Assembly (NCBI GenBank): GCA_028456385.1
Contig: JALNQF010000115.1
Location: 1 to 64,000, forward strand
DNA length: 64,000 nucleotides
Source: Ophiosphaerella korrae
Taxonomy: Eukaryota > Ascomycota > Dothideomycetes > Pleosporales > Phaeosphaeriaceae
Direction of reading: 5' to 3'
The position numbers and the translations under genes were made by a program. The notes beneath the pieces were generated by a model. The model was given only the letters and a program-made list of their open reading frames with translations. It did not search any database and was not told the origin of the DNA. Every line of letters begins with the position of its first letter. Positions within the stretch are counted from its first letter, which is position 1. Shown here piece after piece: positions 1 to 25,487 of this stretch.

Positions 1-1060
1 TATTATAATAGACTTTATTATAAAGTTACTAAAGTCTAAAGACTTAATATTAAGAGTTAAGTATAATAGAATCTTAACAATAGTAGATAAGCTTATAAAG
101 TACATATACTTTAGACTATATAAAGAGAAAAGTAAGATAGAGATTGCTATATACTAGGTTCTAGGAACTGTAATTAGTTAATATAGGCTACTAGATAAGA
201 TTATTATAGATAGAGACGTATAATTTATATTAAAACTATAAGGAACAATAATAGCGTAATTAGGAATTAAATATATAATATCTATAGTATATTACCTACA
301 AACAAATAGATAGTTAGAACGAATAAATTAGATAGTAGAATAATACCTAAGATACTACCTTAACTACAACTAGAATAATTAGGTATAGTTACTACCTATA
401 GTATAGCTAGTATACAACAGCGCAAAGAACATAGTAATAGGAGTATTACTCTTCTTTGCAAACTATAGATTTAAGCCTAATATATACTAGATACTAAGAG
501 AATAGATATCTTAGTTCCTAAGAGGAGAAAACTTCGCTAATAGACTTAAGGATATACACAATTAATTAAGATAGGACGTAGAATTCCTATATAATCGCAT
601 AGTAAAGTATTACAACAAAAAGTATAAAAAAATACCCTAATTTAGAGAGGGAGAAAAAGTATAGTTAGTACGAAAGAATATTAAAAGTAAACAACTAAGT
701 TTAAAATTAGACTACGTTAAGATAAGACTATATAAAATTAAAAAAGAAGTTATACTAGTTATATTTAGATTAAAACTACTAAACAAGATAAAGATACACC
801 TAATATTCTATATAGCCTTACTAGAGATAGTACTATAAAACGTAGAACTACTAGTATACAAAGTAGATACGTATAGAGAATAAGAAGAATAGGAAGTTAA
901 GAAAATCCTAGTACACTAGTTCTATAATAGTAGAAACTATTATATAGTAGAATAGATAGGTATAAATAAAAAAGGGTAACTATAGGAAAAAATATAAGAA
1001 CTAGAAGATAATCTTAATTACCCTAAGAAACTAAAGGACTTCTAAAGTTAAAACCCTCTA
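1..1060 (+). mobile_element. RIP-degraded Ty3/gypsy 3' part: integrase and chromodomain-side tail
   Basis: Frame 2 from about position 11 reads as a stop-riddled gypsy integrase: DFIIKLLKSKDLI, then TIVDKLIKY, then an IIDRDV stretch matching the usual IISDRGPQF region. Around 640-1040 it continues into the C-terminal integrase/chromodomain-like part (GEKV.LVRKNIKSKQL). Stops are nearly all TAG or TAA at places where CAG/CGA/TGG codons are expected. The sequence is saturated with TA, the RIP hallmark. The same region occurs inverted at about 4000-4930, so this is a second copy of the same family. The 5' part lies outside the window. The identification rests on translation by eye; the boundary to the 3' untranslated part is approximate. 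Confidence 0.8.
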
Positions 1061-1687
1061 GAGCGCCTTGTAGCGAACTAAGAAAATTAGTACTACTAGC
1101 GCTAAATAGAGAGACGTTAGGAACGCCTAATATAGTAGGAGCTAGTATAGCCTAAACTATATCCTTAAGGTTTATCTTAGCCTCTAAGGTACAAGACTAT
1201 TTAGATAATTTAGTATTATTATACGCCTTTATCTTATAAAGACGCTTAATACAAGAATAAAGATCTACTAGCTTATAAAGAGTTAGCTTATACTTAGCCT
1301 TAGCCTCTACAAGCTATAATAATAGTATCTCTTAAGCTTAGTTAATAGCTTACCCTATATAACTTAGCAAGAAGAGACTATATAGAAATTAAATACTTAT
1401 ACTCTATAAGAGAGACACTAGATAGTATACACTTATATTAAATATTAGCTAAAATATACTTACTATAGTATTTACTATCCTTTAAAGATATAAGACAAGT
1501 AAGTTTTAATTAAGTATAATAGGCGCAAGGAAATATTTTAACCCTATTACAAGTAATATAAGTAATAAGAAGGAGCTTATTATAATTAGAACGCGAAGAT
1601 ATAGAGAACAATAAAGAACTAGAGATAAACGAAGAAACTAGACTAATAACCTTAGGCCTAGGATAGAGAAACGAGAACCTATCTAAA

Positions 1688-2715
1688 GAGGGGAATAGTG
1701 TTATAGCTATAACAAGAGAAAACTAATTTAAACTAATTAGCCTTACTATAGATAACAATAATACATATAACCTATAGGAGAACAAGTTAGACTAGGAAGC
1801 TAACTATAATAGGGACACGTAATAAATTCGCGATTTGCAATCTTAGTAAATACAAAGTATAAAGCTAAGCACGTAATAAATTTATAATTCGCGATCTTAG
1901 TAAACACGAAGTACAAAGCTAAGCACGTAATAAATTTATAATTCGCGATCTTAGTAAATATAAAGCACAAAGCCAAGCAAGAAGTATAGGTATATAGTTA
2001 GTAGGATACGTATTATTAAGATAGTATTAGTAATTTAATCCTTTAACTATAGAACGATAATACAAGATAGTTGCAAAATATCTTCTATTGTTTATAAGTT
2101 ATTATAGATTATAACCTAAGCTTGTACTATTAACTCTTAATCTACTAACACCCTTTAGGTACTAGGAAGTTAACCCTAGTAATAGCCTATTACAAGAAAT
2201 AAACAAAGAAACTAGACTAATAACTTTAGGCCTAGGATAGAGAAATAAGAACCTACCTAAAGAGGAGAATAGTGTTATAGCTATAATAAGAGAAAACTAA
2301 TTTAAACTAATTAGCCCTACTATAGATAATAACGACGTATATAACCTATAGAGAAATAAACTAGATTAGGAGACTAACTACAATAAGGATACGTAATAGA
2401 TTCGCGATTCGCGATCTTAGTAAATACAAAGTACAAAGCTAAGCACGTAACAAATTTATAATTTGTAATCTTAGTAAATATAAAGTATAAAGTTAGCTAA
2501 GAATTCTAGGTATATAGTTAGTAGGATGCGCATTATTAGGATAGTATTAGTAATTTAATCCTTTAACTATAGGACGCTAGTATAAGATAGTTACAAAACA
2601 TCTTCTACTATTTATAGTTATTATAGATTACTATATAAGCTTTTTTTTATTACCTTTTAATCTACTAACCCCTAAAGAATAGTTACCTATAGTTAACGAT
2701 AGGTAGTCTGTTTAT
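1688..2715 (+). repeat. Two tandem LTR copies of the plus-strand element, RIP-mutated
   Basis: Two similar blocks, about 1688-2192 and 2268-2715, are separated by about 75 bp. Each is preceded by a purine-rich tract (AAAGAGGGGAATA near 1680, AAAGAGGAGAATA near 2258) that looks like the polypurine tract. Both match the reverse complement of the cleaner LTR at 9351-9828, with C-to-T and G-to-A changes. The first carries three copies of an internal repeat of about 50 bp (1800-1980). LTR, short internal piece, LTR suggests recombination or a secondary insertion at the 3' end. Boundaries are good to about 10 bp. Confidence 0.65.
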
Positions 2716-3190
2716 AATAGGCCTCTTATTATTAACTATAGGTACCTATCTAGGGGGTTAGTAGATTAAGAGATAATAACAAAAGTTCGTGTTAGGATCT
2801 ATAATAACTCTAAACAATAGAAGATATTTTGTAACTGTCTTATATTAGCGTTCTATAGTTAAAGGATTAAATTACTAATACTATCCTAATAATGCGCATT
2901 ACTAATAACTATATACTTACTATAATCTATAATCTATATTTACTAAGATTAGTAGATTACAGATTAGCTTAATCTATAATCTACCTCTACTAAGAGTCTA
3001 TAGATTATAGATTAGCTTAATCTATAATCTACCTCTACTAAGAGTCTATAGATTATAGATTACTCTAGGTATCCTAATTATACGTAACTTCCTAGTTAGG
3101 CTTATAGCCTTTAGAGTTGTATAGAACTAGGCTTATAGGATTAATTAGTTCTATCTATAGTTCTCCTATTACTACTATAATACTATCTCC
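2716..3190 (-). repeat. 3' LTR of the minus-strand gypsy element (RIP-mutated)
   Basis: Aligns along its length with 9351-9828 (about 478 bp), differing almost only by C-to-T and G-to-A. For example AATCCGTGATCT in the outer LTR is AATCTATAATCT here. It contains the same internal tandem repeat of about 48 bp. It begins immediately where the plus-strand element's LTR ends, so the two elements meet end to end. Confidence 0.75.
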
Positions 3191-6100
3191 TCTTCTAAGT
3201 AGGCCCTCGTTTATCTATTCTAGAGCTAAGGTTATTAATCTAGTTTCTTTGTTAATATAGAGTTCTTTATCCTCTCTAATACCTATTTTATCTACGCGTT
3301 ATTGCTATTTTCTTGCTAATTATATATTGCGTAATAGTGTTAAAATGTTTCCTTATTCTTGTTATACTTCTCCTAAGTTAAACCCTAAGTCTCTTCCTTA
3401 TATTATTTCTACAAATAATAGTAGGGCTTATAAGGTATATATTTGCGCAAATATACGTAGTTCTTATAACGTATCTAGTGTTTCTCTTTCTAAGTATATA
3501 TTTATTACGCTTATCTTTACGTCTAGGCTTAATAATAATAGGGAAAGCTATTAACTAAACTTAAGAGAAATTACTATCTTAAATTGTAGAAGCTAAAGCT
3601 AAGCGTAAGCGTATCTAGGAGCTTACGCAGAGTAAGCTAGTAGAGAATTAGGCTTATTTCTCTTGTCTTTATAAGATAAAGGCCTTAAATAATAAGAAAT
3701 TAGCTAAGTAGTTAGTAGCTCTAAAAGCTAAGCTAGATCTAGATAAAGCGTTTAATGTTACTGTAGCGGGTCCTACGCTAGACGTCTCTATTATCTCTCT
3801 ATCTATTATTAGTAATATTAATTCTCTTAGTTTACTACTATACGTTCTAGAGGGTTTTAATTTTAGAACTCCTCTAATTTCTTAAGGTAATTAAGATTAT
3901 CCTCTAGTTCCTATGTTTTTTCCTATAGTTGTCCTTTCTTACCTATACTTATCTATTCTACTAAGTAGTAGTTCCTACTATTATAGAACTAGTATTATAG
4001 GATTTCTTTAACTTCTTATTCTTCTTGTTCTCTATATGTGTCTGCTTTATACACTAGTAGTTCTACTTCTTGTAATACTTATTCTAGTAAAGCTATATAG
4101 AATATTAGGTGTATCTTTATCTTACTTAGTAGTTTTAGTCTAAATATAACTAGTAAGATTTTCTTCTTAATTTTGTATAGTCCTATCTTAACGTAGTCTA
4201 GTTTTAAACTAGGCTGTTTGCTTTTAATATTCTTTCGTGCTAACTATACTTTTTCTTCCTTTCTAAATTAGGGTCTTCTTTTATATTTCTTGTTATAATA
4301 CTTTACTATTTAATTATATAGGAATTCTACGTCCTATCTTAGTTAGTTATATATGTCTTTAAGTCTATTAGCGAAGTTTTCTCCTCTTAAGGACTAAGAT
4401 ATCTAATTTCTTAGTATTCTATATGCGCTAAGTTCGAATCTATAGTTTGTAAAGAAAGGTAATACTTCTATTACTATATTCTTTACGCTGTTATATGCTA
4501 ACTATACTATAGGTAGTAACTATACCTAGTTGTTTTAGTTATAGTTAAGGTAGTATCTTAAGTACTATTCTACTATCTAATTTATTCGTTCTAATTATCT
4601 ATCTATTTATAAGTAATATACTATAGACATTACATATTTAATTCCTAATTACGCTGTTATTATTCTCTATAGTTTTAACGTAAATCTTACGTCTCTATCT
4701 ATAATAATTTTATCTAGTAGTCTATATTAACTAATTATAGTTCCTAGAACCTAGTATATAGCAACTTCTATCCTGCTTTTCTCTTTATATAGTCTAAAGT
4801 ACGTGTACTTTATAAGTTTATCTACTATTATTAGGATTCTATTATATTTAACTCCTAATATTAAGTCCTTAGACTTTAGTAGCTTCGTAATAAAGTCTAT
4901 TGTAATAACTCCCTATAGTTATTCTAGTACTTCTACTAGTTATAACATTCTATATAGTATATACTTACTATACTTATTTCTCTAGTATTCTATACAATCT
5001 TGTAGTACCTCTATTACTAACTATCTTGCTTTTAGGATATAGTAATCTTGTAGTAACTTATCTAAGGTCTTGTTAATTCCTTAGTAACTATATACTAGTA
5101 ATTTGTAGAATTATCATATAAATTCTCTTTAGATTTTCTTTAGAATATATATTCTTCTATATACTTATACAAGTCCTTTATAGATCTCTAGTTTATCTAT
5201 TTCTTTAGATACTTTTTATGTTGTTTTCTAAATCTATTTGTCTAGCTCGCTACTCTTTCTCTTAAGTGTTACGGCTATTTTAGGTATATTTAGGACTAAG
5301 TATCCTTCCTCGTTTTTAACTAGAACTATACTAGTAGCGTTTACTTCTTCTTATAAGTCTAGTCTTCTACTAAAGGCGTCTATAAATTAGTTGTCTTTAC
5401 CCTTTATATATATAATTTCTAGGTTAAACGTTAATAAGTACTCTTACTATCTTATATAGCGTTACAATAATTCTTTATTTATTATAAATCCTATAAGATT
5501 CTTATAGTCTATATAGACCTTTGTCTAGTATTTTACTCTTTACAAATATACTCTCTATTACTTAAATACTTTATAGATTGCTAGTATCTCTTTGTCGTAG
5601 ATTAAGTAGTTAAGTTCTACTATCTTTATTTTCTTAGAGAAGTATTTAACTAAGTGTTCTTTTTTAGTCTCTAGGTCTTCTTGTATTAGTACTATTCTGT
5701 AGACTAAATTAGATACGTCTATTTTTACTATTACTAGTAGGTCTAGGTTATATATTCTAATAACTAGGTTTTCTATAAACTTTCTTTTAATCTTATTAAA
5801 TACTTTATTATATTCCTTTATCTATTTAAACAGCGTGTCCTTTTTTATAAGTCTTGTTATAGGTTCTATATCTTTAGACTATCTTACTATTAACTTTCTA
5901 TAAAAGTTAGCTAGCCTATAAAATTATTATACTTCTTTTAGGTTTTTTAGTATTAGCTATTTGTTAATTAATCTAATCTTTTCTAGGTTAATCTTAATTT
6001 TTCCTAGTTTAATAATAAATCCTAAGAAGTCTATTTCTTTCGTGTAGAATTTGCACTTTCTTATTTTAAGAAATAGTTTATTTTCTACTAATTTCTTTAA

Positions 6101-9100
6101 TACTTTGTACACGTGTTGTATGTGTTCTTCTTCTATTTCTAAGAATATAAGGATGTTGTCTAAGTATACAAATATAAATATATCTAAGTACTCTTTTAGT
6201 ACTATATTAATCCTTTCTTAGAATACTACTAGTGTATTTATTAAGCTAAACGGCATAACTAAGTATTTATATAGTCTATACTATATTCTAAATACTATTT
6301 TCTACTTGTTACCTTTTTTAATTCTAATTTAGTAGTAAGCGTTTTAGATATCTAGCTTTGTAAAGATCTTTACTTTTCGTAGCCTATCTTGTATTCTATC
6401 TATTTGTAGTAGTAGGTATTAGTTCTTGTTTATAATTACGTTAGTTTTTCTAAAATCTATATAGGGCCTTTTATTATTTATTTCCTTTTTGTCTATAAAT
6501 ATAAGTTTGTATACTACTAAGGATTTAGATTCTCTTATCTATCCTTTTTTTATTGCGGTCTAAATAAACGCTTGTTTAATCTTAGATTCTTCTTCTGTTT
6601 TTTAGTAGACTAGGCTCTATCCTAAGTTTCTTCCTTCTTCTAGTTCTATTACTAAGTCCTATAGTTAATATTCTAAAAGGTAGTCTTCTAGCTCTATAAG
6701 CTATTCTTCCTATTTCTTGTATTCTTCTAGGAATTCTCCTTTGTAGGTGCTTATGTTAGCTTTTAACGTATTAGTTTTACTATAACTAATTTTCTCTATT
6801 CTCTAATTAATATATAGGTTAATTATCTATAACTATAGTATACCTAATATTATATCTTATTTGTTATCAATTGTCGTTATATCTATAACTATATTTTTAA
6901 TTATTATCCTTTCTAATTTAAGTGTAGAGGGAACTATCTCAAACCTAATAGGTTCTTAGAATAGTTTTCCTTTAATCGTGCTTAGTTATCGAGGGTATTT
7001 CTTCGTTATATACTTTATTCCTTGTGTTTCTACAAACTTCTTTAATATAAAGTTCCTTGTAGCTCTACTATTAATTATTAGTCGTACTTTCTTTCCTTAG
7101 TATATACTTGTTTTTATAATATATAGGCCTCTTATACTTTTTAACTATTCTTGTTTAGGCTCTTTTGTAAACTATCTGTCCTTTTAGGGCTATAGCCCTA
7201 TCTTAAGCTTATATTCTTTATATCTTAGATATTTATTATATATGTATTTGTACTATAGTCTTCTTTAGATATATTTCTTAGATAGTTTTAGGCTAGGTCT
7301 TACTACTACGTATCTATCTTCTAGGATTATTTCTTATCCTTAGATATCTTCTACTATAATTACTCTTGTATAGTTGTAGCCTTTTCTTCTTATAAGCTAT
7401 ATACTATTATTTACTTTAGGGTTTCTATATATAACGCAATTTTTTTCTAGGTATAATATCTATAATGCTTTAAAATATACTAGATGTCTTAGGTCTATTA
7501 TTTTGTTATCCCCTTCCTAGTACTTATCTTTTCTAGGTATATCTATTATTAGGATATAGTACACTACTAGTACTCTTAGTATATAGGCTTTGTTAATCTA
7601 TCGCGTTTTTCTTGTAAGGTACTGCTATTCTTTTTCTATAGGTATTCTTCCTACTACAACTATATATTACTTTATCTATTCTTAAAATAGTATAAACTTA
7701 GTTTCTTTAGGATTGCGTTCTTTCTAGTCTTTATACGCCTCCTCTATACTTATAACTATTAAGTATATCTAAACAAACTTCTATTCTTTATTTCGTTCCT
7801 CTATATCTATTGTTATACAGCTATTATAGCTATATATTATTAGCTAGGTATACTCTATATTTCTTATACTAACTTATCTCTTACTTTCTCGCAGTCCTTT
7901 AGAGGAAGCCGTAGTAGTCTCTTTATCTAGTACTAGTCCTTTAGCCTAGATTAATAGTACTAGGGGCTCTTCCCCTTCTAAGTCTTCTATTAGTAGGTCT
8001 ATTACTTAGGCTATTTCTTCTAGCTAAGCTTTTGTTCTTTCTTTTATTACTACTACTCTATATCTCTATTATAAGAAATATCCTACTCCTTGCTTACTAG
8101 AAAGATATATATAGTAGTCGTCTTTGTAACAAAAGGTCTAATAGAGTATTACGTATTATATTTCTTTACTCCTAGCTACCTTCTCTTAAGGTTTAGCCTA
8201 TGCTTATAGTGCTTCCTTCTTTTTCTTAGTTGTTTTTAACTAAGTTTCTTTCTTTAGGTCCTTACTCTTACAGTTCTTTACAAAGTGTCCTAGTTTCCTG
8301 TATTTATAATATACTATATCCTATTTCTTCTTTAACTAGTAGTCTTTCGCGTAGTAGCCCTTTCTACTACAGTTAAAGTACGTAAAGTTTTTACTCTTCT
8401 TCTTCTTCCTATCCTTGTTAGCGTTAAGGATTATAGGATCTCTAGCATTCTAATTTCTATTTTAGGTACTATACTTATTCTTCTTCTATTTCTAAAGATT
8501 ATCGTCGATTTATATTACCTATTACTTTAGAGCTTCTAGTGTCCTTAGTTTCTCTATGTAGATTATTTCGTATTAAATCTTAGAGTTTAGTCCTTGTTTA
8601 AATCGTAACATTAAGGCTAACTCGTTCTATTCTATGTTTTAGGATAGTTACTTAAATTATAATACGTACTTAGGAACACTCTAGTTTTATATAAGCTTTT
8701 CTAGCTGCTCTTTAGCTTATTAGGTAACGTCCGTGTCTCTAAATACTACTCTTATTCGTTTAGTAAAGTATTTGTAACTTCTAAAAATAGCTCTAGTTTC
8801 GTCTTTCTAGGTTATTAGAGAGTATGTCGTGTAATCTATCTAGTATAGTTCGTACTATCTTATTGCGTCTTCTTCTAGGTGCAACCTAATATATATTACC
8901 TTCTTTTCTTCCGTGTCGAAGTATAGTACTTGTACATCTATCTAGAGTTGTACTAATACTATAAAGGGTCTCAATTTCTCCCTAGTTCTATCAAACTTCT
9001 TAAAGACAAGTATCTTTAGTAGTTTCTTCGTTACACTTATAGCTAGACGTTGTATAATTAGTTCTATTTAATTTTAGCCTTTAATAATAGCTTTAATCTG

Positions 9101-11872: not shown

Positions 11873-14800
11873 ATGGTTGTCACTTCAGGCGTGAACTTTT
11901 TTGTTAACTTTTATGATCTCAACCCTTTCACGCAAAGACAATGCATATACTTCACAAAGCAAGGTGCCCGGTGCCGATGGAATTGTCATGAAAACGCACG
12001 GGCGCGAGTACTTCATCGGCGCATCCTTGCCTCGAGTAGCGAGAATCTCTCTACCGAGGATATCATCGAGTACCTTCTATGCAACTGCTGTACGTACGAT
12101 AGTGCGATAGATCCGTTCCAAAAGGTAGAGCACCGGGAGTATATAGAGGATGCGGGCCTTGTGGCACCGTTGGCGAAACGATGGAGAGCGGAGATACTGG
12201 CTCGGCTGCGAGTGACCGAAGCCCGCACACAAGCCACGAGGGGTCCCTCTACGCCGAGCCCAGCTTTCACACTACTTGATAGTAGTCCAGCTTTCACAAC
12301 ATATTCTGCGTCTGTTGCATCAACACCAAATCGCGATTCGGTTACCCAAACCCCCATCACAGATCCATCTTACTATAACACTCGCAGTTCACTGTCTCGG
12401 GAACGGTTTTTGGCATCCCCAAGCCCGCAAGTATGCTCGACGCCAACCCCTCACATTTCGGGGGTAGCTGCTATCTCAAATTTTTTTGGAACACAAGCAA
12501 TAGAAAATCAATCGCCCTACAGGGAAGGCTCTCCAGAGGCGAGTGCTCCCATAAATCGCACCTCTAGCCTTGAGTATCGCTACTCGCAACCCCCGGAAGG
12601 CGAGTTTCGACCACATAAGGCGAGACCTTCCTCTAATGATACTGTCTCATGGATGATGCAACGCGAGCCTCAAAGGCGAGATAACGAATCTGGCTTAATA
12701 TACATCTTTGATCGCGATGGGTCTCCTGGTCATGTCAAGATTGGTTGGACTGCGATTTCTGTTCAACAACGTCTAGAGGATTGGTCGAAACATGGATACA
12801 CGCCACGTCTGGTATTCGAGACTGAGCGAATCCCGAATGCGCAGCGCATTGAGACCCTTACGCACTACGAGCTTATCACAGAATGGCGCCGGGAGCTCAG
12901 GTGCAGAAACCCAGACTGCGACGTTAAACACCAGGAATGGTTTGAAGTTAGCCCGGAGAAGGCCAAAAAAGTAGTTGGCGACTGGGTACAGTTTTCTAAG
13001 AAGGCTAGCCCTTTTGACAACTCAGGTTATCTGAAGAAAATGTGGATAGATAGGGTGAATGAAATGGAAGAAAAAGGCGGAGCAGTGACATCAGCAACGA
13101 TGCTGGCGCTCGCATTAGCTGATGAGTCTGCAACGTTCAAGAATATCAGCCAATCCCCACTAAAACAATTTGCGAAACAGGAACCCGTCGTGGAAGAACC
13201 GGCAAGAGTCGAATTAAAGAACCTCACCGACATTACTCAAGTAATACAGGCCGCGCTGGAAGGCTTCAAGAAGGAGTCCCTGCTTGCACAACAGGAATTC
13301 ATGAAAGAATTGCGGTTGGAACAGGACGAATACATGAGAGATCTGCGATTGATGCAGAATCAATTCATGGAAAGGTTGAAACCAACAAAGTTTACGGTCC
13401 AGGAGCCCGAAATCGTAGAGGCTGAGGTTGGGACTGCAAAATCTACTGTCTCTAAGCGGCGGATTAGGATTAGGCTCCCAAAACCAAAAGAGGAAAGCGA
13501 AATTACAGTGAAAGAAAAAGGTGCATTGCCAGCATTGCAAGATTCAAAACCACTCTCCGAACTGCGTCAGAAAGAGCCGACCTCTTCTGCGGCTGCAGTG
13601 AATTCCGTAGATAAAACGCCGTCGCGGAACGTCGTAACGAAAGAAGAAGAGTCAACCACCGAGGCCCAGCCACGTCAGACTAAGCTAGAGTCTGAGGGTC
13701 ATACCAATTCTAAAGTTACTCTTACACCCAACTTCAAACCCAAGAATGATGACAGAGTGTCTCTAGACTATTCTTCTCCTAGCGCTTTTACAGCATCTTC
13801 CACCAGGACTCACTTCATGTCCAATGAATCGTTGTTCGCAGAAGTGGCACGGGACACCAAAGAGACATCAGCGAAAACGTCCCCCTTCGGGTCACTACCA
13901 CTCTTCGGGCCGGGCACGTCTGAAAGCAAACAAACATCATTCGGAGCTAGTCCGATGCCAGAACCTAAGACACCGTTTAGTACAGGAACTATATTTGCAC
14001 AGGGCAAGACGTTGTTCGGTGGGGCTGCGTCTACAGAAACGAAGGGGCTATTTGGTGAATCAACAAAAAACACGTCCTTATTTAACACCAAGGAAACGTC
14101 CCAGGGAGCTTCGTTATTTGAAACCAAAAAGGCGCCCGCAGAGGGTACGTCTTTATTTGGTACCCTAGGGACAAACCATCAAAATTCATTTCTTGATGCA
14201 AAAGCGACATCAGCGGGCAAAGGATTGTTCGATACTAAGACGACCTCCACATCTTTATTTGGAGCCTCAGTGACGTCTACAACAGGCTCTTTGTTCGGTA
14301 CCAAAGCCGCATCCGCTGGCAGCTCGATTTTCGGTAGCAAATCGACCTCAGAAAATTCGCTTTTTGGCAACAAGACATCACTCACAGGAGGCTCTTTATT
14401 TGGCACCAGCACAACAGATGCACAAAGCTCGCTGTTTGGTAGCAAGGCACCATACCTTGGAAACTCTCTATTCGGCACCAAGGTGACTCCGACATCTTCA
14501 GAAAGTGCTTCCTCCAGCGAGACAGCTTCGGCATTTGCAGCGGTTTCATCGTCCCCATTCACGGCACAATCCACTTCAGCACAAACCTCACTGTTTGGTA
14601 CCACGGGGACTTTCACAAAAAATACTTCGCTGTTCGGATCAGGGACAATACCAACGGCACCCTTTGATTATTCGCCCAAAAAAGCTACTAGCACACCAGA
14701 TTGGACGAAACCTTTAGGTTTCTCAATCAACACCTCAACGGAGAGTACGCCGGGTCAAGGCTCTAAGAAACCACTAAGCACTGCCGAATCCCAGGATACA

Positions 14801-15580
14801 ATGTTGACTGCGCCAAAGACCCCAAGTATATTCGATACACAAGTCAAGATGGAATTCGATGGCTTTGAGTCAGATTTTGGCTCTAAAATTCCAACGAGAA
14901 AGCACGTGCCGACTCCACAGCAGTTACCAAAAGATGAGTCGGTGCAGTGCACAGAAACCGTAGTCAAAAAGGAAACCACTGGGAATATTACATCTCTCGA
15001 GCCACCATTGATAACAAGCGTCTCCGGAACACCGACTAGTCTTTCAATCAAGGAGAATAAACAACACGTGGACGTCTGCAAGTCGGATAAAGATCAGATA
15101 AAGGAAGAGGGCTTTGAAGAAAATGAGCTACATGGAAAAGGGTTGGCAGAACAAGCTCAGCGCGATCAAGAACTGAAGCAACACAGTTACAATGAGGAAT
15201 CAGAGAAACGGGACCCGCACGCTGAAAATCTTCGCAACAACAGCTCAGACGACCAAATTGATCAGGATAATGTGGAGGAAGAATGTGTAAAAGAAGACGG
15301 AATCGAGGATGATTTACCTGAGGAAAACACTGATAAAGATCAAGAGGAGAATCATGTCTCAAAAGATGAACTATTAGAAGAAGATGTTGGCAGTGGCGAA
15401 GTCCGACATGAGTATGACGACAAGCAACCTACTCGGCAAGCGCGCAGCTCTGGCGAGCCAGTTGCAAAATCGCACAAAGCAGGAACCATAGTCTCTAATG
15501 TTCAGATTACAATTTCAGAGAAGGAATCGGAGCATATTGGAGTCATTTTCAGTGAAGTGAAGGCAGTCGATGAGCCCTAG
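11873..15580 (+). CDS. T5orf172 (GIY-YIG) domain protein with FG-nucleoporin-like repeats
   Basis: The open frame extends upstream to 11843 but the first in-frame ATG is at 11873 (MVVTSGVNF), giving 1235 aa without introns. Order: a Cys-containing N-terminal segment (QRQCIYFTKQGARCRW); a Ser/Thr/Pro-rich linker; about residues 272-390 a T5orf172-type GIY-YIG module (GLIYIFDRDGSPGHVKIGWT, then RIETLTHYEL and HQEWFEV), a nuclease-fold family common in filamentous fungi; a predicted coiled coil near 464-502 (QEFMKELRLEQDEYMRDL); about residues 656-930 a low-complexity domain with 15 FG dipeptides in degenerate units such as SLFGTK, GLFG and SIFGSK; then an acidic, charged tail to the end. FG repeats of this kind form the permeability barrier of nuclear pores or bind transport receptors. 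The fusion suggests a nuclear or pore-associated role, which is inference. Some FG units have decayed to SLFN, SLFE and GLFD. A small 5' intron cannot be excluded. Confidence 0.8.
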   Translation: MVVTSGVNFFVNFYDLNPFTQRQCIYFTKQGARCRWNCHENARARVLHRRILASSSENLSTEDIIEYLLCNCCTYDSAIDPFQKVEHREYIEDAGLVAPLAKRWRAEILARLRVTEARTQATRGPSTPSPAFTLLDSSPAFTTYSASVASTPNRDSVTQTPITDPSYYNTRSSLSRERFLASPSPQVCSTPTPHISGVAAISNFFGTQAIENQSPYREGSPEASAPINRTSSLEYRYSQPPEGEFRPHKARPSSNDTVSWMMQREPQRRDNESGLIYIFDRDGSPGHVKIGWTAISVQQRLEDWSKHGYTPRLVFETERIPNAQRIETLTHYELITEWRRELRCRNPDCDVKHQEWFEVSPEKAKKVVGDWVQFSKKASPFDNSGYLKKMWIDRVNEMEEKGGAVTSATMLALALADESATFKNISQSPLKQFAKQEPVVEEPARVELKNLTDITQVIQAALEGFKKESLLAQQEFMKELRLEQDEYMRDLRLMQNQFMERLKPTKFTVQEPEIVEAEVGTAKSTVSKRRIRIRLPKPKEESEITVKEKGALPALQDSKPLSELRQKEPTSSAAAVNSVDKTPSRNVVTKEEESTTEAQPRQTKLESEGHTNSKVTLTPNFKPKNDDRVSLDYSSPSAFTASSTRTHFMSNESLFAEVARDTKETSAKTSPFGSLPLFGPGTSESKQTSFGASPMPEPKTPFSTGTIFAQGKTLFGGAASTETKGLFGESTKNTSLFNTKETSQGASLFETKKAPAEGTSLFGTLGTNHQNSFLDAKATSAGKGLFDTKTTSTSLFGASVTSTTGSLFGTKAASAGSSIFGSKSTSENSLFGNKTSLTGGSLFGTSTTDAQSSLFGSKAPYLGNSLFGTKVTPTSSESASSSETASAFAAVSSSPFTAQSTSAQTSLFGTTGTFTKNTSLFGSGTIPTAPFDYSPKKATSTPDWTKPLGFSINTSTESTPGQGSKKPLSTAESQDTMLTAPKTPSIFDTQVKMEFDGFESDFGSKIPTRKHVPTPQQLPKDESVQCTETVVKKETTGNITSLEPPLITSVSGTPTSLSIKENKQHVDVCKSDKDQIKEEGFEENELHGKGLAEQAQRDQELKQHSYNEESEKRDPHAENLRNNSSDDQIDQDNVEEECVKEDGIEDDLPEENTDKDQEENHVSKDELLEEDVGSGEVRHEYDDKQPTRQARSSGEPVAKSHKAGTIVSNVQITISEKESEHIGVIFSEVKAVDEP
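13840..14660 (+). repeat. Degenerate FG-repeat-coding tandem array
   Basis: Within the preceding gene, units of roughly 45-60 bp encode [ST][LI]FG followed by T/S/K-rich spacers. At DNA level TTTGG(T/C)A(C/G)CA is repeatedly seen. The units are too diverged to be a fresh minisatellite. Confidence 0.7.
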
Positions 15581-16113
15581 ATAATTTTCATACTAGTAGT
15601 AGATTGTTGGGAAGGTCAATATTGCAGCTTCTTGTTACAATGATTTTGTGATAATCAGTGCCTTGGCCCAAGCATAGAACTATATAAGCACTGTGACGTT
15701 AAATATGCAGTCAACTTTAATAATATCAAAAGCCGAAAATCTTGAGAAAACGGGCTTGTTCTATCGCTACTCTCAATGGTGGTACTTTCTACTTGATAAC
15801 GACATGATCTGTTATCACGGAGTAATATCCCTATCCCATTCACCCACTATGTATCGCATTAGCTCTCCCATTCCAACGTCGTCTATTTAATCGGAGTATG
15901 AATACGACCAAAGCAACAAGGGTTGTACTCACGACGGTGGCACCCGAGACCTGAATCCAGCTGTGTGTAGATTTTGGCAGAACGTGGTAGGCTAAATCTG
16001 TGGGAAAATAATTCGAAATACATGAATGTGCTACCTGAATTATTTTGACCCGAAAGAGGCCATAGATCGAATAAAGATCAATCTTGATATCGGGTCTGTA
16101 TACTAACGTCAAA

Positions 16114-16518
16114 TAACGTAGTTTACAAGCGAGTGACGCACCCCAAAACACACCAAAAACGCTGAAAAACAGCCTCTTAAATCTCAACGTCAGCGCTATA
16201 ATATTATCTATAAACCTAGGGATAGGTTCTTATGCTCATTTTAAATTATTGTTGAAATTCTTCGACTAATAGGTTGTATAGTTTCCTAGATATAATATTT
16301 TGGCCCCCAATCTTGTGCAAATATCAAAAATTCTACTATATTTCAAGAATTAATTGATATATTCTTCTTTAACTTAAGAATTACCCTAGTTGCAGGTATA
16401 CAAACCTGTCCTTAGGTTTATAGATAATATTATAACGCCGACGTTGAGATTTAAGAGGCTGTTTTCCAGCGTTTTTGGTGTGTTTTGGGGTGCGTCACTC
16501 GCTTGTATACTACGTTAT
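16114..16518. mobile_element. TA-flanked MITE with ~95-bp inverted repeats
   Basis: The left arm ACGTAGTTTACAAGCGAGTG (from 16116) is matched by the reverse complement of the right arm ending at 16516. Arms stay nearly identical for about 95 bp (GACGCACCCCAAAACACACC, then AACAGCCTCTTAAATCTC). TA dinucleotides flank both ends (16114-16115, 16517-16518), the target duplication expected for Tc1/mariner/pogo elements. The AT-rich centre has no transposase. Open frames in this stretch are products of the arms, not genes. The rest of 15581-17316 shows nothing I can support. Confidence 0.8.
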
Positions 16519-18454: not shown

Positions 18455-21400
18455 TTAAATAATACACCACTTGTTATTGTCCGTCAGAAGTATCTTCCCA
18501 TAAACAAGCTGGTCGAGGGGAGGGTTCATATCAATCATTCTGGTCTTTGTGATGTTGTTGCCCGTTAGTATTCGGTCGGCATATAGATCATCCAGTTCCG
18601 AGTCATTCTCCCAATCACTATAATAAGAAACCTCGTCTTCCGTGTCCAAGTCATCCAATGCTTCGCTCATTTCTGTTGCGTTAGGTTTGGAATCATGTCC
18701 ACTACGTTCGCTAGCGTGGTCGCCATAATTTTCTTTATCTTCTTCATCATCGCCATCATTATCAACCTCTTGATCAACATCGCTATCACTCCCACCCTCG
18801 TCCCTTGCCTCCGAAAATTCTCCGCTTCCCCGGCTGTTTTCTAAACTCTCCCTGCTCTTGTTACCCGAAAGATCATGCATTGGATGATGCCTATAGTCGC
18901 TGCTGCTGTCTCCACTGCTGTCCTCCCAAAGTTCTTCACTATCCTCTCCACTATCTTCTTCACTATCTTCTTCACTATCTTCTTCACTATCTTCTTCACT
19001 ATCTTCTTCACTATCCTCTTCACTATCCTCTTCACTTCCCTCTTTACTTCCCTCGTCCTTCACAGATTTCCAGCCATCGCTGTCCTCGTCCACCCAAGCA
19101 TCTCCTTCCTCGAGCTCGCTCCCACACACTTCCACGCTTGAGGCCTTTTCCTTCGCCATCTCACGTCTTCTGTCTATCACCTTGACCCGGGCTGTGGCAA
19201 GATGCCGCAGCTTTCTGACCCTTTTGTCCATCATACCTAGAAAGACACCAAAAACGGCGGGAATCGGACTAGTTGTGTCGAGCGTAGGAGCAGCTAATGT
19301 GACTAGAGCATATTGGTTCGTCGCATGTTCAGACTCGGTAATTTGAGGAAAGTCTTTTAACGTCACGTGATAGAGAAGCCGCCTGAAGCCTCTCTCCCGG
19401 ACATAGAATGTGCCTGCTTTCATTTGTGACCAGCCAACGGTATGAAGCATGATTCCAGGAAAGGTGACCATGAGACCGAGCGCGTTGTCTATTTGGCGCG
19501 AGTCCCGGGAAGCGCCAGAGGGATTCTTGAATACAATGGGAGCCCGCCCCTCATGTCGCTGGGCGATTTGGTGAAACCACTCACGATGTATGAAGTCTGA
19601 GGCGGCTGACTGGCCTAGAAACGACGACGGCGCCCAACGGTAACCATCTCCTGGCAGACGAGGTAGGTCGTTAAAGATGATTGATTTCTCAAAGCAGCCG
19701 ATCATGCAAAGGAACTGCTTCATCCGTCCGTCGCACACCCGCGTTTCCTCTGCGAGCCTCTGTTCCTCGGGGATAGCCCACAATTCTTCCCAAGAAAACT
19801 TAAATTGGATGTTGAGAAGTGGGCTGTTATCGAGGCGCAGCAGTGCTGATAGGCAGATTGTCTCATCTTCGCGCCACGACGTTCGGCGGTCTTTGGCTAC
19901 AGGGACAAGCGCACTAAAGCGCGCATCCGGTGCAAAATCATCCGGGTTTTCCTCTTCTTCATCCCACCGGAGGCTTATAGAGAGCAGTGTGAGCAAATCT
20001 ACGGTAACATGGTGCCAAAACTCAGGGCTGGCACCATAGCGTTGGCCAGGGGTGCGTCTAGCCTGCCGTTGACCTTCCTCCTCCTGCAATTCTTCCAGTG
20101 TGTAGACGCCGTCAGAGAACTGTATGAATAGCTGTTGAGCCATAATTCCCTCTTGAAGCGTCCAAATGCGACTCTGCCAGTTGCTAAGAATTAAACAGAT
20201 GGCGCGGTCGCAAAAGGGACTTGATACAGAGAGTTGCTGGATGCCGTCGTCAAGCACGAGCACACGGTCTGCCCCCTCGTATATTTTGCGCATTTGTATG
20301 ATAGCCTTGCGCCGGAGGTGCGCTTGGCTTTTCCCGACGGGTATGCAGAGCGTGTCCATCCAGAATCCTTTAGGCTGGCGGTGAGGATCTCTTGGCTTCT
20401 GGCGCTCCCAGGGCCCAAAGAGTAAAACTGTGCTTGGGGGGTCTGCTCTGGGGATATTATAGAGCGCCTCGACTTTCGCATGGATACTCTTTAGCTGACA
20501 TTCCGGAAGCGCGTTGCGCTCTCGGTTTCCTTTACCATCCGACCAACTGCGTGAAGAATTCTTGTTACTACTCGAATGACGAACGGACGGATGAGATGAC
20601 ATACACATGGGAAATGGCCACATAGGTCATATTTGGTTCGTACTCGACTACGTCCAAGCCACCTTCGTCTGACCATGTTGCCAGTGGGATGCCCCCTTTT
20701 TCCACAATGGCGGCCGCCAAGGACGGCATCTCCCTCATGCTACAAGCACATCCTTTCACCACATGGGAAGTCTCATATGTCTTTGTATTGGCCATCTTGC
20801 CGCGGCAGATGGTGTTCGTACACTGGTCATGGTTCTCGAGTGGGTGTGGGTTGGGAGCCGAGCTGACAAATAGCATAAAATCAATGCACTGCTCGGCGAG
20901 GAATTTGGCTATGAGTGCCCTGCACCAGTTTGAGTCTTGCAGCTTCTCTCGCAACGCCCACCGGACACCCCAGTTCCTCTGGATAAGGCTGACAGAATCG
21001 CCATATATCTTGTCCGAGACTTGCTGGAAAGTATAACCTAATGCTGCGATGGATAGCGCAATGTTTGGCCAAGACAATGTCAGGGGCTGTTAGGGTGATT
21101 TTTGGCAAGGAAACAGCGGAATTCTTGAAGGGGACCCCTAAGATTTTGTCGAATCGTCCATAAGATTTCTTTGACTTGACTTTTCTCCTTGGCCATCACC
21201 TTCTTTGGGCGACGACGCGCACGTTCGCGATTTATCCATTTGTCTAGATACGTATTCAGACCAGCGGATGATACAACATTCCCTCCATCGTCGGTTGGCC
21301 GGATGAAGCTGGCGGTGTCCATTGGCAGGTGGATAATATTCGATATCTCAGCAAGACAACCGAAATACAGCCATGTCTGGAAGAAGGCCTGATATGCATC

Positions 21401-21556
21401 TGGCGGTAGCCGGACAAAAGAGCATACGGAAAGATCATCTTTCATCTCTCTCCGGTGAGGGAAGCGGGAAAAGGCGCCCAAGGGATCGTTGTACAGAGTG
21501 CCAACGAACGGAACGGTTGGCGGCTCGGTGCCGTGAGGGAAAGGCAGATGATCCAT
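18455..21556 (-). CDS. HET-domain protein with acidic SEED repeat tail (possible frameshift)
   Basis: The start chosen is the ATG at 21556 (MDHLPFPHG), a typical N-terminus of this HET subfamily with the WLYFGCLAEI segment. A 58-nt intron (20604-20547, GTATGT..ACGCAG) restores the HET signature as YVAISHV|WSDGKGN. The HET domain continues with FWMDTLCIP, IYEGADRVLVLD and SRIWTLQEG. The C-terminal region is highly acidic and holds about seven tandem SEED units (about 18940-19040). Between the first part and IALSIAALGY the frame changes at a G4 run on the plus strand (21083-21086). One extra base would give NSPLTLSWPN without a break, and no convincing intron donor is seen, so this is a 1-nt frameshift (real or sequence error). 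HET domains trigger heterokaryon-incompatibility cell death when activated. Expected length is about 1000 aa. Confidence 0.75.
18940..19040 (-). repeat. 12-bp minisatellite encoding SEED repeats
   Basis: The plus strand shows ACTATCTTCTTC repeated in tandem about 7-8 times with small variation (TCTTCC, TCTCC). On the minus strand it encodes (SEED)n within the HET protein's acidic region. Copy number is likely to vary between strains. Confidence 0.85.
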
Positions 21557-21760
21557 CTCTTGAATCTGAACTAGGAGCGACGAAATGTCTGGATGCCAGG
21601 ATAACAAGGTGCTGGCGGATGTGGAGGGGATGCTTACTTGGCTGTTACCCAATCCGGGCGTCACGTGTCGTACCTCGTGTAAGTGTACGCTTGCACCATG
21701 CACTAGCGGCTCCACTCCGCGCCTTATCACAGTGCCACGAGTAAAAGAACAGGCCCACCC

Positions 21761-21892
21761 TACAGTGTCTTCGCATGGTGGAGCGCATCCCTGTCAAAGT
21801 TTAACGAAATACGGCTCTAGGTCACACCGACTGTTATGCTCCGATTCGCCAAACTTTGATAGGGATGCGCCTCACCATGTGAAGGCGCTGTA
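21761..21892. mobile_element. Small TA-flanked inverted-repeat element (MITE)
   Basis: The left arm CAGTGTCTTCGCATGGTGGA (from 21763) pairs with the reverse complement of the arm ending at 21890 over about 42 bp, with some mismatches, around a loop of about 45 nt. Both outer ends are flanked by TA. It sits about 200 bp upstream of the HET gene start, within its likely promoter. The mariner-like assignment rests on TA flanks and the CAGTG terminus only. The rest of 21557-22062 shows nothing else. Confidence 0.6.
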
Positions 21893-22062
21893 CATTCGAA
21901 TGCATACTGTCAGCTGAAAGCGGGGGTTCAGTTTTCTATGATAAGCTAGGTCCCGCTGTTGTCAGTCCATCTATCCATCATAATTAGACTGAGGCGTAGC
22001 CCGGTGGTCAAGCAGCACGTTGTATATCTTCCTTCACATATCTTCACGAGTATTACCGCACC

Positions 22063-22483
22063 ATGGGCTCAGTGGAGCAAAAAGCCTACGACGAGCTCAG
22101 AGGCATCTACCAGAAGGACCAAGCCAAATTTGAGAGCGCGCTAAAGAAGGCCAGCAAGGACAGGCTCAGGCAGGATGCGATACTCCGTCAGCGTCTGAGA
22201 GAATGTGAGGCGTAAGCTTTCCCTCCCTCTGCGTCCATAGCTTGAAGTCGATTCCTGACGTTTGTTAAATGGCAGGATTTGCAACTTCTGCCAAGAGCTC
22301 ACACCGAGCGACGACGCGAAAGCCGCAAATTCGTGGTTGAAAGAAGCGAATCGATGGTTAGGTCGAAAGCGCAAGCTCGAGCGCCAGATGGATGAGATTG
22401 ACGATGAAAACGATGATGAATTGCCCCTCCCGGACCGGGAAAAGGGAAGCGGAGGGAAATGGAAGGAAATCAGTTATTACTAA
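22063..22483 (+). CDS. Small charged protein, function unknown
   Basis: Reconstructed from two exons: 22063-22211 and 22276-22483, intron 22212-22275 (GTAAGC..GGCAG, 64 nt). Phases fit (149 + 208 nt = 119 codons including stop; 118 aa). The start MGSVEQKAY has a favourable ACCATGG context. Joining gives ..RECEA|ICNFCQELTPSDD.., so the CxxC pair (CNFC) follows directly after the splice. The rest is Lys/Glu/Arg-rich and helical in appearance, with an acidic DDENDDE stretch near the C-terminus. I do not recognise the family. The splice and Kozak agreement support a real gene. Confidence 0.6.
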
Positions 22484-23585
22484 GGTGCATACCATTTGGG
22501 GGCAGGCATCACGGTATCTTCTTCAAATGAGCGTGTAATGCCTTGGCGCACCTCTGGTTGCATATCTGTTTTGCGGCAATTGAAGTAGTGTCCCTGTAGT
22601 GCCGCAATAGGCTCAGAGGCGATACCTCATCCTTGGTCTTGCTTCTAACGGTTCTCGGACTGGCTTCCACAGCATTTCATTACCGCCAACATTGGTCTCG
22701 ATGCACCCTATCTTGTCTGGTTCATTGTGTAGTGGCTCAAGCAATAGCTCGACCTTGTGTCGTAATTATATTGAGTAATTTTTGTAGTTCCGGGACGAAC
22801 AAATCGTGTTGAGGTAACCCATTCTCGTCTTGCCTCCTCAGCCACCTCAGATGCTCAGTATATTTATCCGAAACAGCATGTACAATTATCTTTCCGCCGT
22901 TAAATGCCTGTATTTCTACAAACATTAGGTCAGCATAGAAGTAATTTAACCCAGCTATCCTTTGACGGCGCTACCAAAGTGCTGGCTCCAGAAACCTTTT
23001 CGTTAGCTGCACATTCGCCGGTAGTCTTACTAAGTGAGTCGAGTAGGAACACCCTTGTAGTAACTATAAACAGATTTACTTCGGCTGCCAGGATCATTTG
23101 AGTCCGCTAGCAGACGAATAGCCTTATCTCGTCATCTACGAACCAATTTCAAATGCGACGCCTAAAACGGTTTTAATGAGCCCCATATCATCCCGATGAA
23201 ACTGAGGGTCCCTTCATAGAGTAACAAAAGGAAAATGTTCCGTAGGGTAGTCGCTGTGGTACAGGGGCGATAATGCTCTCTGAGAACACATCTGAAAATC
23301 AGGCTCGTGGAGGAACGCACACGGTGAGAGTAATTGCGGATCCGCTGTCACCTACGCTAATCTTTATTGAGGAAAAACGAAAGGAAAACCAAAGGCTCTG
23401 ACCTGAATCGCTGTCGATCCAATGACATAGTAAGCCCCCCCCCCCCCCCCCCCCTTTCACTATACTCCTTCAAGGACATTTAAGCAAGGACAGAGTGTAA
23501 TTGAGTGGTTCCCATACCGATTATCCCCCAGTTTGCCTTTCTACCGAAAATCTATTCCTATCGACAGTTCTCATCTCTAACCAAT
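22484..23585. other. Intergenic with a 20-nt poly-C tract
   Basis: No supported gene. A run of 20 C residues lies at 23435-23454, about 150 bp beyond the 3' end of the next (minus-strand) gene; it is a likely polymorphic or error-prone site. Confidence 0.6.
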
Positions 23586-25487
23586 CTAGCGCCTCCTTTT
23601 AGATTTTTTGTGGCGGTTGATTAGCGAAAGTGTCCATTGTCTCACGGATAAAATTCTTGTCCCCGGTACTTCGCTAGGAGATAGAATCTCACTGTCAGAA
23701 CCAGGAAGAGTGGCATTGATAGCATGGATATCAGGCGCAACGCTAACAATAGAAGAAGCAATTTGCTTATCTGGGATGGCCACAGCCATGCTGGTCTCAT
23801 TTGCCGCAGCAGTGTCAAATTCAAGCTCAAGCCTAAAGTGTGGAATTTCCTTTTCCTCCTCGAGCAATATCGTGGCTGTAATAGTGATTGGATTTGACGA
23901 CGTATCTAATGTGATTTGGTCCACTTTCTTACCTGTATCGAGCGGGGAAGTTGAGTTGTTGCCTTGAGTTATGGATATCCCAAATTCCGTCTCTAAGCAT
24001 CTCCACTCTTCAGAAGAGCAAAGCCGTACCCATGGTCTGGGATGTGAAGAGCCCTCCTGATGCTGGACCCCGCACAACAAATTGCACGGACTGGCTCGTT
24101 TTCCAAGAGCATTTGTTGTTTCAGCTACTGGCTGGGTGAGACTAGGGTAGAGCCTCCAAAAAGCTTGAATCCCACTATCTCCATTTGTGAGAAACTGCAT
24201 ACGTGCCGTATCCCAACGGTTACTTGAAGGCACGCGCCGGAAAACTTCAAGCGCCTTAGACAAGTGGTAAGCATGAGACGTAACGCGGACTGCGTAATTG
24301 CCTGACGACTTAAGCTGGAGATGGGTCAAGGGGGAAATGACCGCGATGATGTACGCTTCTTCGATTTCAGTGCGGACTTCAGAAGGAGCGTCCAACCTCA
24401 GTTCATTTGCTGTATCGGTGTATTGGGAATCGGTGTAGTTGAACTTCGCGAATAGGCCAGGGCCAACTTTCCGGAGATAGATCTGAGAGACCGTGGAGTT
24501 GGATAGCCTGCAATTCAAAGGTAAAGTGTAAACACCACGTCGCATATCCACCTGGAGCCTGGCTTGCGGAAAGTGAAGGCCTCTGTTAGTTAAAGTAAAT
24601 ACATCATTCCCGTGCATGTTTGTACCCATGCCCACAAGACTTTCGCAGCCTGCAAAATCACTTGGGGATCTGGCAAACATGCTATAATAGGTCTCCGATA
24701 CGCCGCGAGCGGGAGAGCAGTAGGAATCGTACTGTGGAAGATTGGGGAAGGCGAAAAGTGTGAGGTCGTTCGAGGTCCTGGCGATTTCTTCCTGCAGGCG
24801 CATGAACGCCCCTGAGCCCTCGCCGTAAAGCATAGGTATATGAACATTAAATATTCCCAATAAGCAGTAAGCAATATCCTCTAGCCGGGTTGTTTCTCTC
24901 CCAGCTGCCCAAGACATCTTACGGCCCACCGAGATCATCTTAACCTGGTTCCGGTCGACTAGCGCCTGTTCATCGATGTGTGTGATGCTAGAGAGAATCG
25001 GCGTTAAATCTACCTTTGCGCCAATACGATTCCACCCTCTGTCATAGAACTCAACCACCTTTGGCGCGATAAGTTCTTGTAGACACCAGCCTCGCGTGAA
25101 CCATCGACATTTGGGCAGCCCAACCTCAAGAGGCGTAGTATTATCAAAGTCGCCAAGGAAAGCAAAACATAACTCGGCATTCCAATACCACTGATACATG
25201 GAATTAATTGCCTCGCTTAACTCGGAACTGCTCGTCTTATCGATGCAGCACGTATCCACCCATGCGTATCCAAACCCCCTTCGGCTAGCTTGTCGACAGG
25301 TCGCCACAATCTTAGCATACCCGGCTTTCTCCGACGCTGGATGGTACATGTCATTTTCGATGGCCAGAATATCCTGGAATGAGACTTCGTCGTCCTCCCA
25401 TGTGTGCGACAATATAGCATACGGGGGGGTGTTGCTTAGGAACGTCTTCAGGGAGAATGTGAGCGTATCGATGAGTCGTATGAACAT
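23586..25487 (-). CDS. HET-domain protein, HET-E/HET-D-like N-terminal type
   Basis: Single open frame of 633 aa starting at ATG 25487 (MFIRLIDTLTFSL), the usual position of a HET domain at the very N-terminus. Motifs in order: YAILSHTWEDDEVSFQDI (about 23-40), KIVATCRQA, GYAWVDTCCIDK (about 73-84), SEAINSMYQWYWNA, RWFTRGWCLQELIAP (about 125-140), and further on AYCLLGIFNVHIPMLYGEG, conserved in this subfamily just after HET. The C-terminal 350 residues have no repeat or NACHT domain; they show beta-rich segments as in the conserved C-terminal region of such HET proteins. It is probably an intracellular trigger or effector of incompatibility-type cell death; the partner is unknown. Convincingly intact: no stops, full length for a HET-only protein. 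Confidence 0.85.
   Translation of the reverse strand: MFIRLIDTLTFSLKTFLSNTPPYAILSHTWEDDEVSFQDILAIENDMYHPASEKAGYAKIVATCRQASRRGFGYAWVDTCCIDKTSSSELSEAINSMYQWYWNAELCFAFLGDFDNTTPLEVGLPKCRWFTRGWCLQELIAPKVVEFYDRGWNRIGAKVDLTPILSSITHIDEQALVDRNQVKMISVGRKMSWAAGRETTRLEDIAYCLLGIFNVHIPMLYGEGSGAFMRLQEEIARTSNDLTLFAFPNLPQYDSYCSPARGVSETYYSMFARSPSDFAGCESLVGMGTNMHGNDVFTLTNRGLHFPQARLQVDMRRGVYTLPLNCRLSNSTVSQIYLRKVGPGLFAKFNYTDSQYTDTANELRLDAPSEVRTEIEEAYIIAVISPLTHLQLKSSGNYAVRVTSHAYHLSKALEVFRRVPSSNRWDTARMQFLTNGDSGIQAFWRLYPSLTQPVAETTNALGKRASPCNLLCGVQHQEGSSHPRPWVRLCSSEEWRCLETEFGISITQGNNSTSPLDTGKKVDQITLDTSSNPITITATILLEEEKEIPHFRLELEFDTAAANETSMAVAIPDKQIASSIVSVAPDIHAINATLPGSDSEILSPSEVPGTRILSVRQWTLSLINRHKKSKRRR

What the first reader, a model, noticed from the sequence alone, without database searches (positions are those of the whole stretch)
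11873..15580. GIY-YIG (T5orf172) module fused to FG-nucleoporin-like repeats
Seen: a T5orf172-type domain, a coiled coil, then a low-complexity domain with 15 FG dipeptides (SLFG/GLFG-like) and an acidic tail in one uninterrupted 1235-aa frame. T5orf172 proteins in fungi are mostly uncharacterised, and I do not know of a described one with a nucleoporin-like FG domain. The combination could tether a nuclease-fold protein to the nuclear pore or to transport receptors, or form condensates.
Basis: partly seen in the sequence, partly recalled or inferred. Interest (0 to 1): 0.75.

Follow-up and report, generated by a model that had tools for sequence, protein, structure and literature searches.

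The report
Fungal nuclease-fold protein with pore-like repeats
A fungal gene joins a DNA-cutting-enzyme fold to a floppy tail of the sticky phenylalanine-glycine repeats normally found in nuclear pore proteins, and relatives suggest this kind of tail has appeared more than once in the family.

Summary
Window 11873-15580 (+) is one uninterrupted 1235-aa frame: Cys-rich N-terminal domain, T5orf172 (GIY-YIG) domain, 11-residue-repeat stretch, FG domain (15 FG in residues 661-930, seven of them 11-12 residues apart), acidic stretch. The FG stretch passes Pfam's Nucleoporin_FG cut-off; in this genome's search two other loci did. It is not filed as a nucleoporin: no pore-anchoring domain was found, and the genome has separate Nup98-96, Nup49_C and Nsp1_C loci.

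Of 121 family members examined, 8 have significantly FG-rich tails, of SLFG type or, in a separate clade, FxFG type; trees reject one clade for them. Most long tails of other members carry G-less phenylalanine motifs (28 of 42 tails of 300 aa or more), but short tails mostly do not. The register here (LFxT-K) resembles family repeats, not the fungus's own Nups, so the FG array probably arose in place.

Against a strict FG function: 5 of 16 FGs are kept in the nearest FG-bearing relative, and a close relative ends before the FG half. Best reading: nuclease-fold protein with a fast-evolving multivalent phenylalanine tail that here became nucleoporin-like. Pore or importin binding is plausible but untested. 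The papers searched did not show this combination.

The parts
11873..15580 (+). whole gene, single frame, 1235 aa
11891..12238 (+). N-terminal folded Cys-rich domain, residues 7-122; C72, C73 and H87 nearly invariant in 36 rows
   Evidence: AF2 model; conservation
12590..13147 (+). folded T5orf172/GIY-YIG region plus conserved C-terminal helices, residues 240-425
   Evidence: AF2 mean pLDDT 94.8; Pfam; Slx1 matches
12692..12985 (+). T5orf172 domain proper, residues 274-371: Y277, K289-I-G291, R300, E327, H331, and C344-x4-C349-x3-H353
13292..13381 (+). 11-residue repeat stretch, residues 474-503 (QEFMKELRLEQ / DEYMRDLRLMQ / NQFMERLK), perhaps a helix
   Evidence: sequence; exact 11-residue gap in P0002
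13454..13489 (+). basic NLS-like stretch KRRIRIRLPKPK, residues 528-539, largely kept in P0002
   Evidence: sequence; the NLS reading is inference
13886..14638 (+). FG domain, residues 672-922, 15 FG, about half S+T+G
14252..14479 (+). core array, residues 794-869: seven LFG/IFG units 11-12 residues apart
15113..15412 (+). acidic stretch, residues 1081-1180

Best explanation
A protein of the T5orf172/GIY-YIG nuclease superfamily, probably nuclear, with a long disordered tail of short phenylalanine motifs. In most long-tailed relatives these motifs lack G (SLFKTE- or FSFxxE-like); in this lineage the residue after F became mostly Gly, giving an SLFG array with the motif, spacing and low charge of a cohesive nucleoporin FG domain. 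Proposed mechanism (inferred): the GIY-YIG domain binds or cuts DNA, and the FG tail gives multivalent weak contacts that hold it where other FG or FG-binding proteins are (transport receptors, the pore, or its own condensate). Shown here: architecture, fold class, presence of catalytic-type residues, FG density, recurrence in the family, and a repeat register shared with part of the family. Inferred: disorder, nuclear location, cutting activity, and what the tail binds.
Confidence: 0.46

Rival explanations
1. The tail is a weakly constrained low-complexity spacer; FG dipeptides are one of several states it drifts through, and no transport receptor or pore is bound.
For: FGs no better kept than neighbours between P0001 and P0002; 113 of 121 members do not pass the FG test; 79 of 112 non-FG members have fewer than 5 [LIV]F or FxF motifs; tails differ greatly in length and motif.
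Against: Within P0001 the Ser and Gly of the units are held in 13 of 18 while synonymous third bases are scrambled; FG-rich tails occur in lineages that the data reject as one clade; 16 FG against 2.6 expected.
Confidence: 0.37
2. The FG half was captured from a host nucleoporin by gene fusion.
For: Matches to solved Nup49 (E 1.3e-6) and Nup98-96 (E 0.0013) with the FG part; the own Nup98-type frame has the same median FG spacing of 12.
Against: The register after LF (T at +2, K at +3) is found in the family and is almost absent in four own Nup frames; unfiltered BLAST similarity to the own Nup98 frame (36.6 bits) lies among that to tails of relatives (P0002 118, P0004 46.6, P0032 38.9, P0033 30.4 bits); relatives have other F repeats in the same place.
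Confidence: 0.05
3. The GIY-YIG domain is a catalytically dead DNA-binding or regulatory domain, so the protein is a scaffold rather than a nuclease (can be true together with the other readings of the tail).
For: The position that I take, from recall, for the second tyrosine of the GIY-YIG motif reads Lys (KIG) in 56 of 56 rows; database names call the family DNA-binding; nuclease activity of the yeast homologue is still open (passages of PMC12719033).
Against: R300 and E327 are held in 55 of 56 rows; the phage T5orf172 nuclease Odn cleaves DNA and its E180A mutant does not (passages of PMC8263062).
Confidence: 0.25
4. Two neighbouring genes or an assembly artefact read as one frame.
For: P0100 lacks the FG half; no transcript data.
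Against: Collinear relative P0002 over 88%; other members with T5orf172 and FG tail in one record, P0004 and P0032; the gene shows no RIP signature.
Confidence: 0.04

Closest known systems
T5orf172 / MUG113 proteins of fungi (S. pombe mug113, S. cerevisiae Yfs1/YPL034W)
   Same: Pfam T5orf172 and MUG113 both above cut-off
   Different: Orthology was not tested. The passages read on Yfs1 and mug113 report a GIY-YIG-like central domain, no assigned function for Yfs1 and no meiotic phenotype on deleting mug113, and mention no FG domain.
Slx1 (GIY-YIG structure-selective nuclease working with Slx4)
   Different: No RING-type domain in the Pfam scan (that Slx1 has one is recalled); long tail
GLFG/SLFG nucleoporins (Nup98, Nup49 type)
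   Same: SLFG motif, 12-residue spacing, charge-poor Ser/Thr/Gly-rich domain; an engineered 12-residue GLFG repeat is enough for a selective FG phase (passages of PMC8245513)
   Different: No Nup98 autopeptidase, Nsp1_C or Nup49_C anchor in the Pfam scan, which own Nup frames do have; much less Q/N (6%) than the own C973, C30 and C4 frames (17-45%), though not than C468 (5.4%)
Odn (Gp88), phage ICP1 T5orf172 nuclease
   Same: T5orf172 catalytic module joined to a part that directs it to its target (passages of PMC8263062)
   Different: Odn's aiming part is a RepA_N-like domain, not FG repeats
AGFG1 (ArfGAP with FG repeats 1)
   Same: A catalytic-type domain fused to FG repeats outside the core pore (recalled; only the name was seen, in the listing)
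   Different: Unrelated catalytic fold

Membership tests
T5orf172 (PF10544) | Pfam match above the curated cut-off | tested here: met
   68.7 bits, cut-off 20
T5orf172 (PF10544) | GIY-YIG-type residues incl. Arg and Glu | tested here: met
   Y277, R300, E327 present; R and E in 55 of 56 rows. That E327 is the catalytic Glu is inferred from its place, not aligned to a solved nuclease
T5orf172 (PF10544) | nuclease activity | not testable with these tools
   needs protein
MUG113 / Yfs1 orthologue | orthology with mug113/Yfs1 | not tested
   PF13455 matches but no yeast sequence was compared
Slx1 | GIY-YIG fold like Slx1 | tested here: inconclusive
Slx1 | C-terminal RING/PHD-type zinc domain (recalled as a feature of Slx1) | tested here: not met
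   no such family among the four listed by the Pfam scan at E up to 1
FG nucleoporin | FG-repeat domain | tested here: met
   PF13634 34.8 bits over 32.2; 1 of 3 loci over the cut-off in the genome search
FG nucleoporin | pore-anchoring domain (Nup98 autopeptidase, Nsp1_C, Nup49_C or similar) | tested here: not met
   none in P0001; found in own Nup frames of C973, C4 and C468
FG nucleoporin | location at the nuclear pore | not testable with these tools
   needs microscopy

The most novel reading that the evidence does not exclude
A fungal nuclease-fold family has repeatedly evolved nucleoporin-type FG domains, of both SLFG and FxFG kinds, from its own phenylalanine repeats, so as to enter or line the nuclear-pore FG phase or bind transport receptors: a pore-directed nuclease, for example acting on DNA that passes or docks at the pore.
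Probability: 0.25. Interest if true: 0.8.

Novelty: new variant of a known kind. Interest (0 to 1): 0.55.

Why it matters
FG domains are usually thought of as the hallmark of the pore. A non-nucleoporin family in which both canonical FG motif classes occur in separate lineages, with what look like intermediates (LFK and LFG units in one protein, P0004), would give a natural test of which sequence features are enough for an FG phase, and a first handle on an uncharacterised fungal nuclease-fold family.

Full report
Check. The frame 11873-15580 (+) encodes 1235 aa without interruption. Pfam-A reports T5orf172 (274-371), MUG113 and Nucleoporin_FG (784-856), all above the curated cut-offs. FG dipeptides after residue 423 number 16 against 2.6 in composition-preserving shuffles. 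Seven FGs at 796-867 are 11-12 residues apart. Residues 661-930 are poor in charge (D+E 5.6%, K+R 7.0%) and rich in Ser/Thr/Gly (48%).

The units are not a fresh DNA repeat: no TRF array in the gene, and the DNA copies of the three repeat families of the FG region (D1-D3) are 65-86% identical to their reference copies. Over 18 [LIV]F-anchored units, Ser at -2 and Gly at +1 (not used to pick the units) are each held in 13 of 18, while third-base identity is 0.30 and 0.29; gene-wide Gly codon use would give about 0.27 by my arithmetic from the codon counts. That suggests selection on the amino acids within this gene. Between genes the picture is weaker: against P0002 only 5 of 16 FGs are kept, with F and G each kept 8 of 16, close to the 101 of 236 for other residues of 661-930.

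Relatives. Three searches gave 121 proteins with the query; the last found 161 and listed 120. All 24 scanned members of alignment A3 have T5orf172 and MUG113, and 3 of 24 have Nucleoporin_FG at E <= 0.01; only P0001 passes that family's cut-off among the nine FG-type members. Eight of 121 pass an FG test (at least 3 FG, p < 0.01): P0001, P0002, P0004, P0032, P0033 (SLFG type) and P0017, P0018, P0053 (FxFG type); P0016 belongs to the latter clade with p 0.02. Trees of the parts before the tail need four changes of tail type (36 rows, of which starred branches force three; 121 rows, quick tree with long-branch warnings). One clade for the five SLFG members is rejected (p-AU 8.7e-5), as is one for the eight FG-type rows of the 36-row tree (p-AU 4.1e-4); P0001/P0002 with P0004/P0032 is not (0.18). 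Changes cannot be told as gains or losses. The nearest third relative, P0100, ends near P0001 residue 560 without an FG half; its contig is short.

Tails without FG. Of 112 such members, 42 have tails of 300 aa or more, and 28 of these 42 carry at least 5 [LIV]F or FxF motifs (20 of 42 at least 8); over all 112 it is 33. Seven of 112 have two or more LFxT[KEDR] units. So phenylalanine-motif tails are common among long tails, not family-wide.

Origin of the FG array. In the 112 members, LF is followed most often by K (63 of 170 sites), with T at +2 (55 of 170) and a charged residue at +3 (87 of 170). P0001 has G at +1 (12 of 16) but keeps T at +2 (8 of 16) and K at +3 (7 of 16). In four own Nup frames T at +2 is 1 of 49 and a charged residue at +3 is 2 of 49. 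P0033 does not show the signature (T at +2 in 1 of 9). The 55 sites come from 29 proteins, led by P0012, P0052 and P0009, and repeats within one protein are not independent, so the Fisher p of 2e-5 is only a guide. P0004 has LFK and LFG units together. I read this as SLFKTE-like repeats turning into SLFG repeats in place.

Own genome. G000 has 63.0 Mb in 974 contigs; the window is the start of contig C19. T5orf172 matches lie at eight places, the window gene included. Nucleoporin_FG passes its cut-off at three loci: C973 (Nup98 autopeptidase and, in a neighbouring frame, Nup96), C30, and the window gene. C4 has Nup49_C and C468 has Nsp1_C. The first piece of a paralogue on C242 is 97.6% identical over 494 aa to P0036, named as a Pseudopithomyces chartarum protein, so the fungus is probably close to it.

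Function. No function is assigned to yeast Yfs1/YPL034W, and deleting S. pombe mug113 gave no meiotic phenotype; Yfs1 shows genetic interactions like those of the Holliday junction resolvase YEN1, both with strong synthetic defects with POL12 (passages of PMC12719033). A perfectly repeated 12-residue GLFG peptide is enough for a selective FG phase, and F-to-S or F-to-A changes abolish cohesion (passages of PMC8245513). From these I infer a nuclear DNA-acting protein whose tail gives multivalent phenylalanine contacts; the basic stretch at 528-539 could be an NLS. Whether the partners are transport receptors, the pore or other copies of itself is open.

Verdict. Real architecture, one of a recurrent set, not a nucleoporin and probably not a nucleoporin fusion by the evidence here. 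New variant of a known kind.

Noticed in passing
window 16113-16518: About 400-bp foldback element (121-nt arms, 93% complementary) just downstream of the gene; 111 match rows, both strands and partial ones included, in the genome from 40 scored of 58 candidates, a MITE-like repeat.
   Followed up: partly
window 1 to about 9500: AT-rich block (26-28% GC in 1-8000) with strong RIP-type indices (TpA/ApT 1.7, (CpA+TpG)/(ApC+GpT) 0.25-0.27); the gene itself is not affected (0.71, 1.20).
   Followed up: partly
window 18455-25487 (-), 26442-29225 (-): Neighbours include one clear HET-domain frame, one weak HET match below the cut-off, and two TPR frames, an accessory-region look.
   Followed up: no
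L033 941-3340 (-) (G000 C242): T5orf172 paralogue whose frame is parted by a TAA into 504- and 295-aa pieces that match one continuous relative, P0036. One search gave an open frame of 813 aa there, one search gave 504; the difference was not resolved.
   Followed up: partly
L032 3049-4956 (+) (G000 C712): 636-aa frame with 8 FG and GLFG/SVFG motifs but no Pfam family at E up to 0.1; possibly another FG protein.
   Followed up: no
P0016, P0017, P0018, P0053: FxFG-type repeats (FQFG, FRFG) on T5orf172 proteins of one clade, P0017 named as Exophiala aquamarina.
   Followed up: partly
P0020, P0029: Tails of FSFA/FSFT repeats almost without FG: F-x-F arrays with a different spacer.
   Followed up: no
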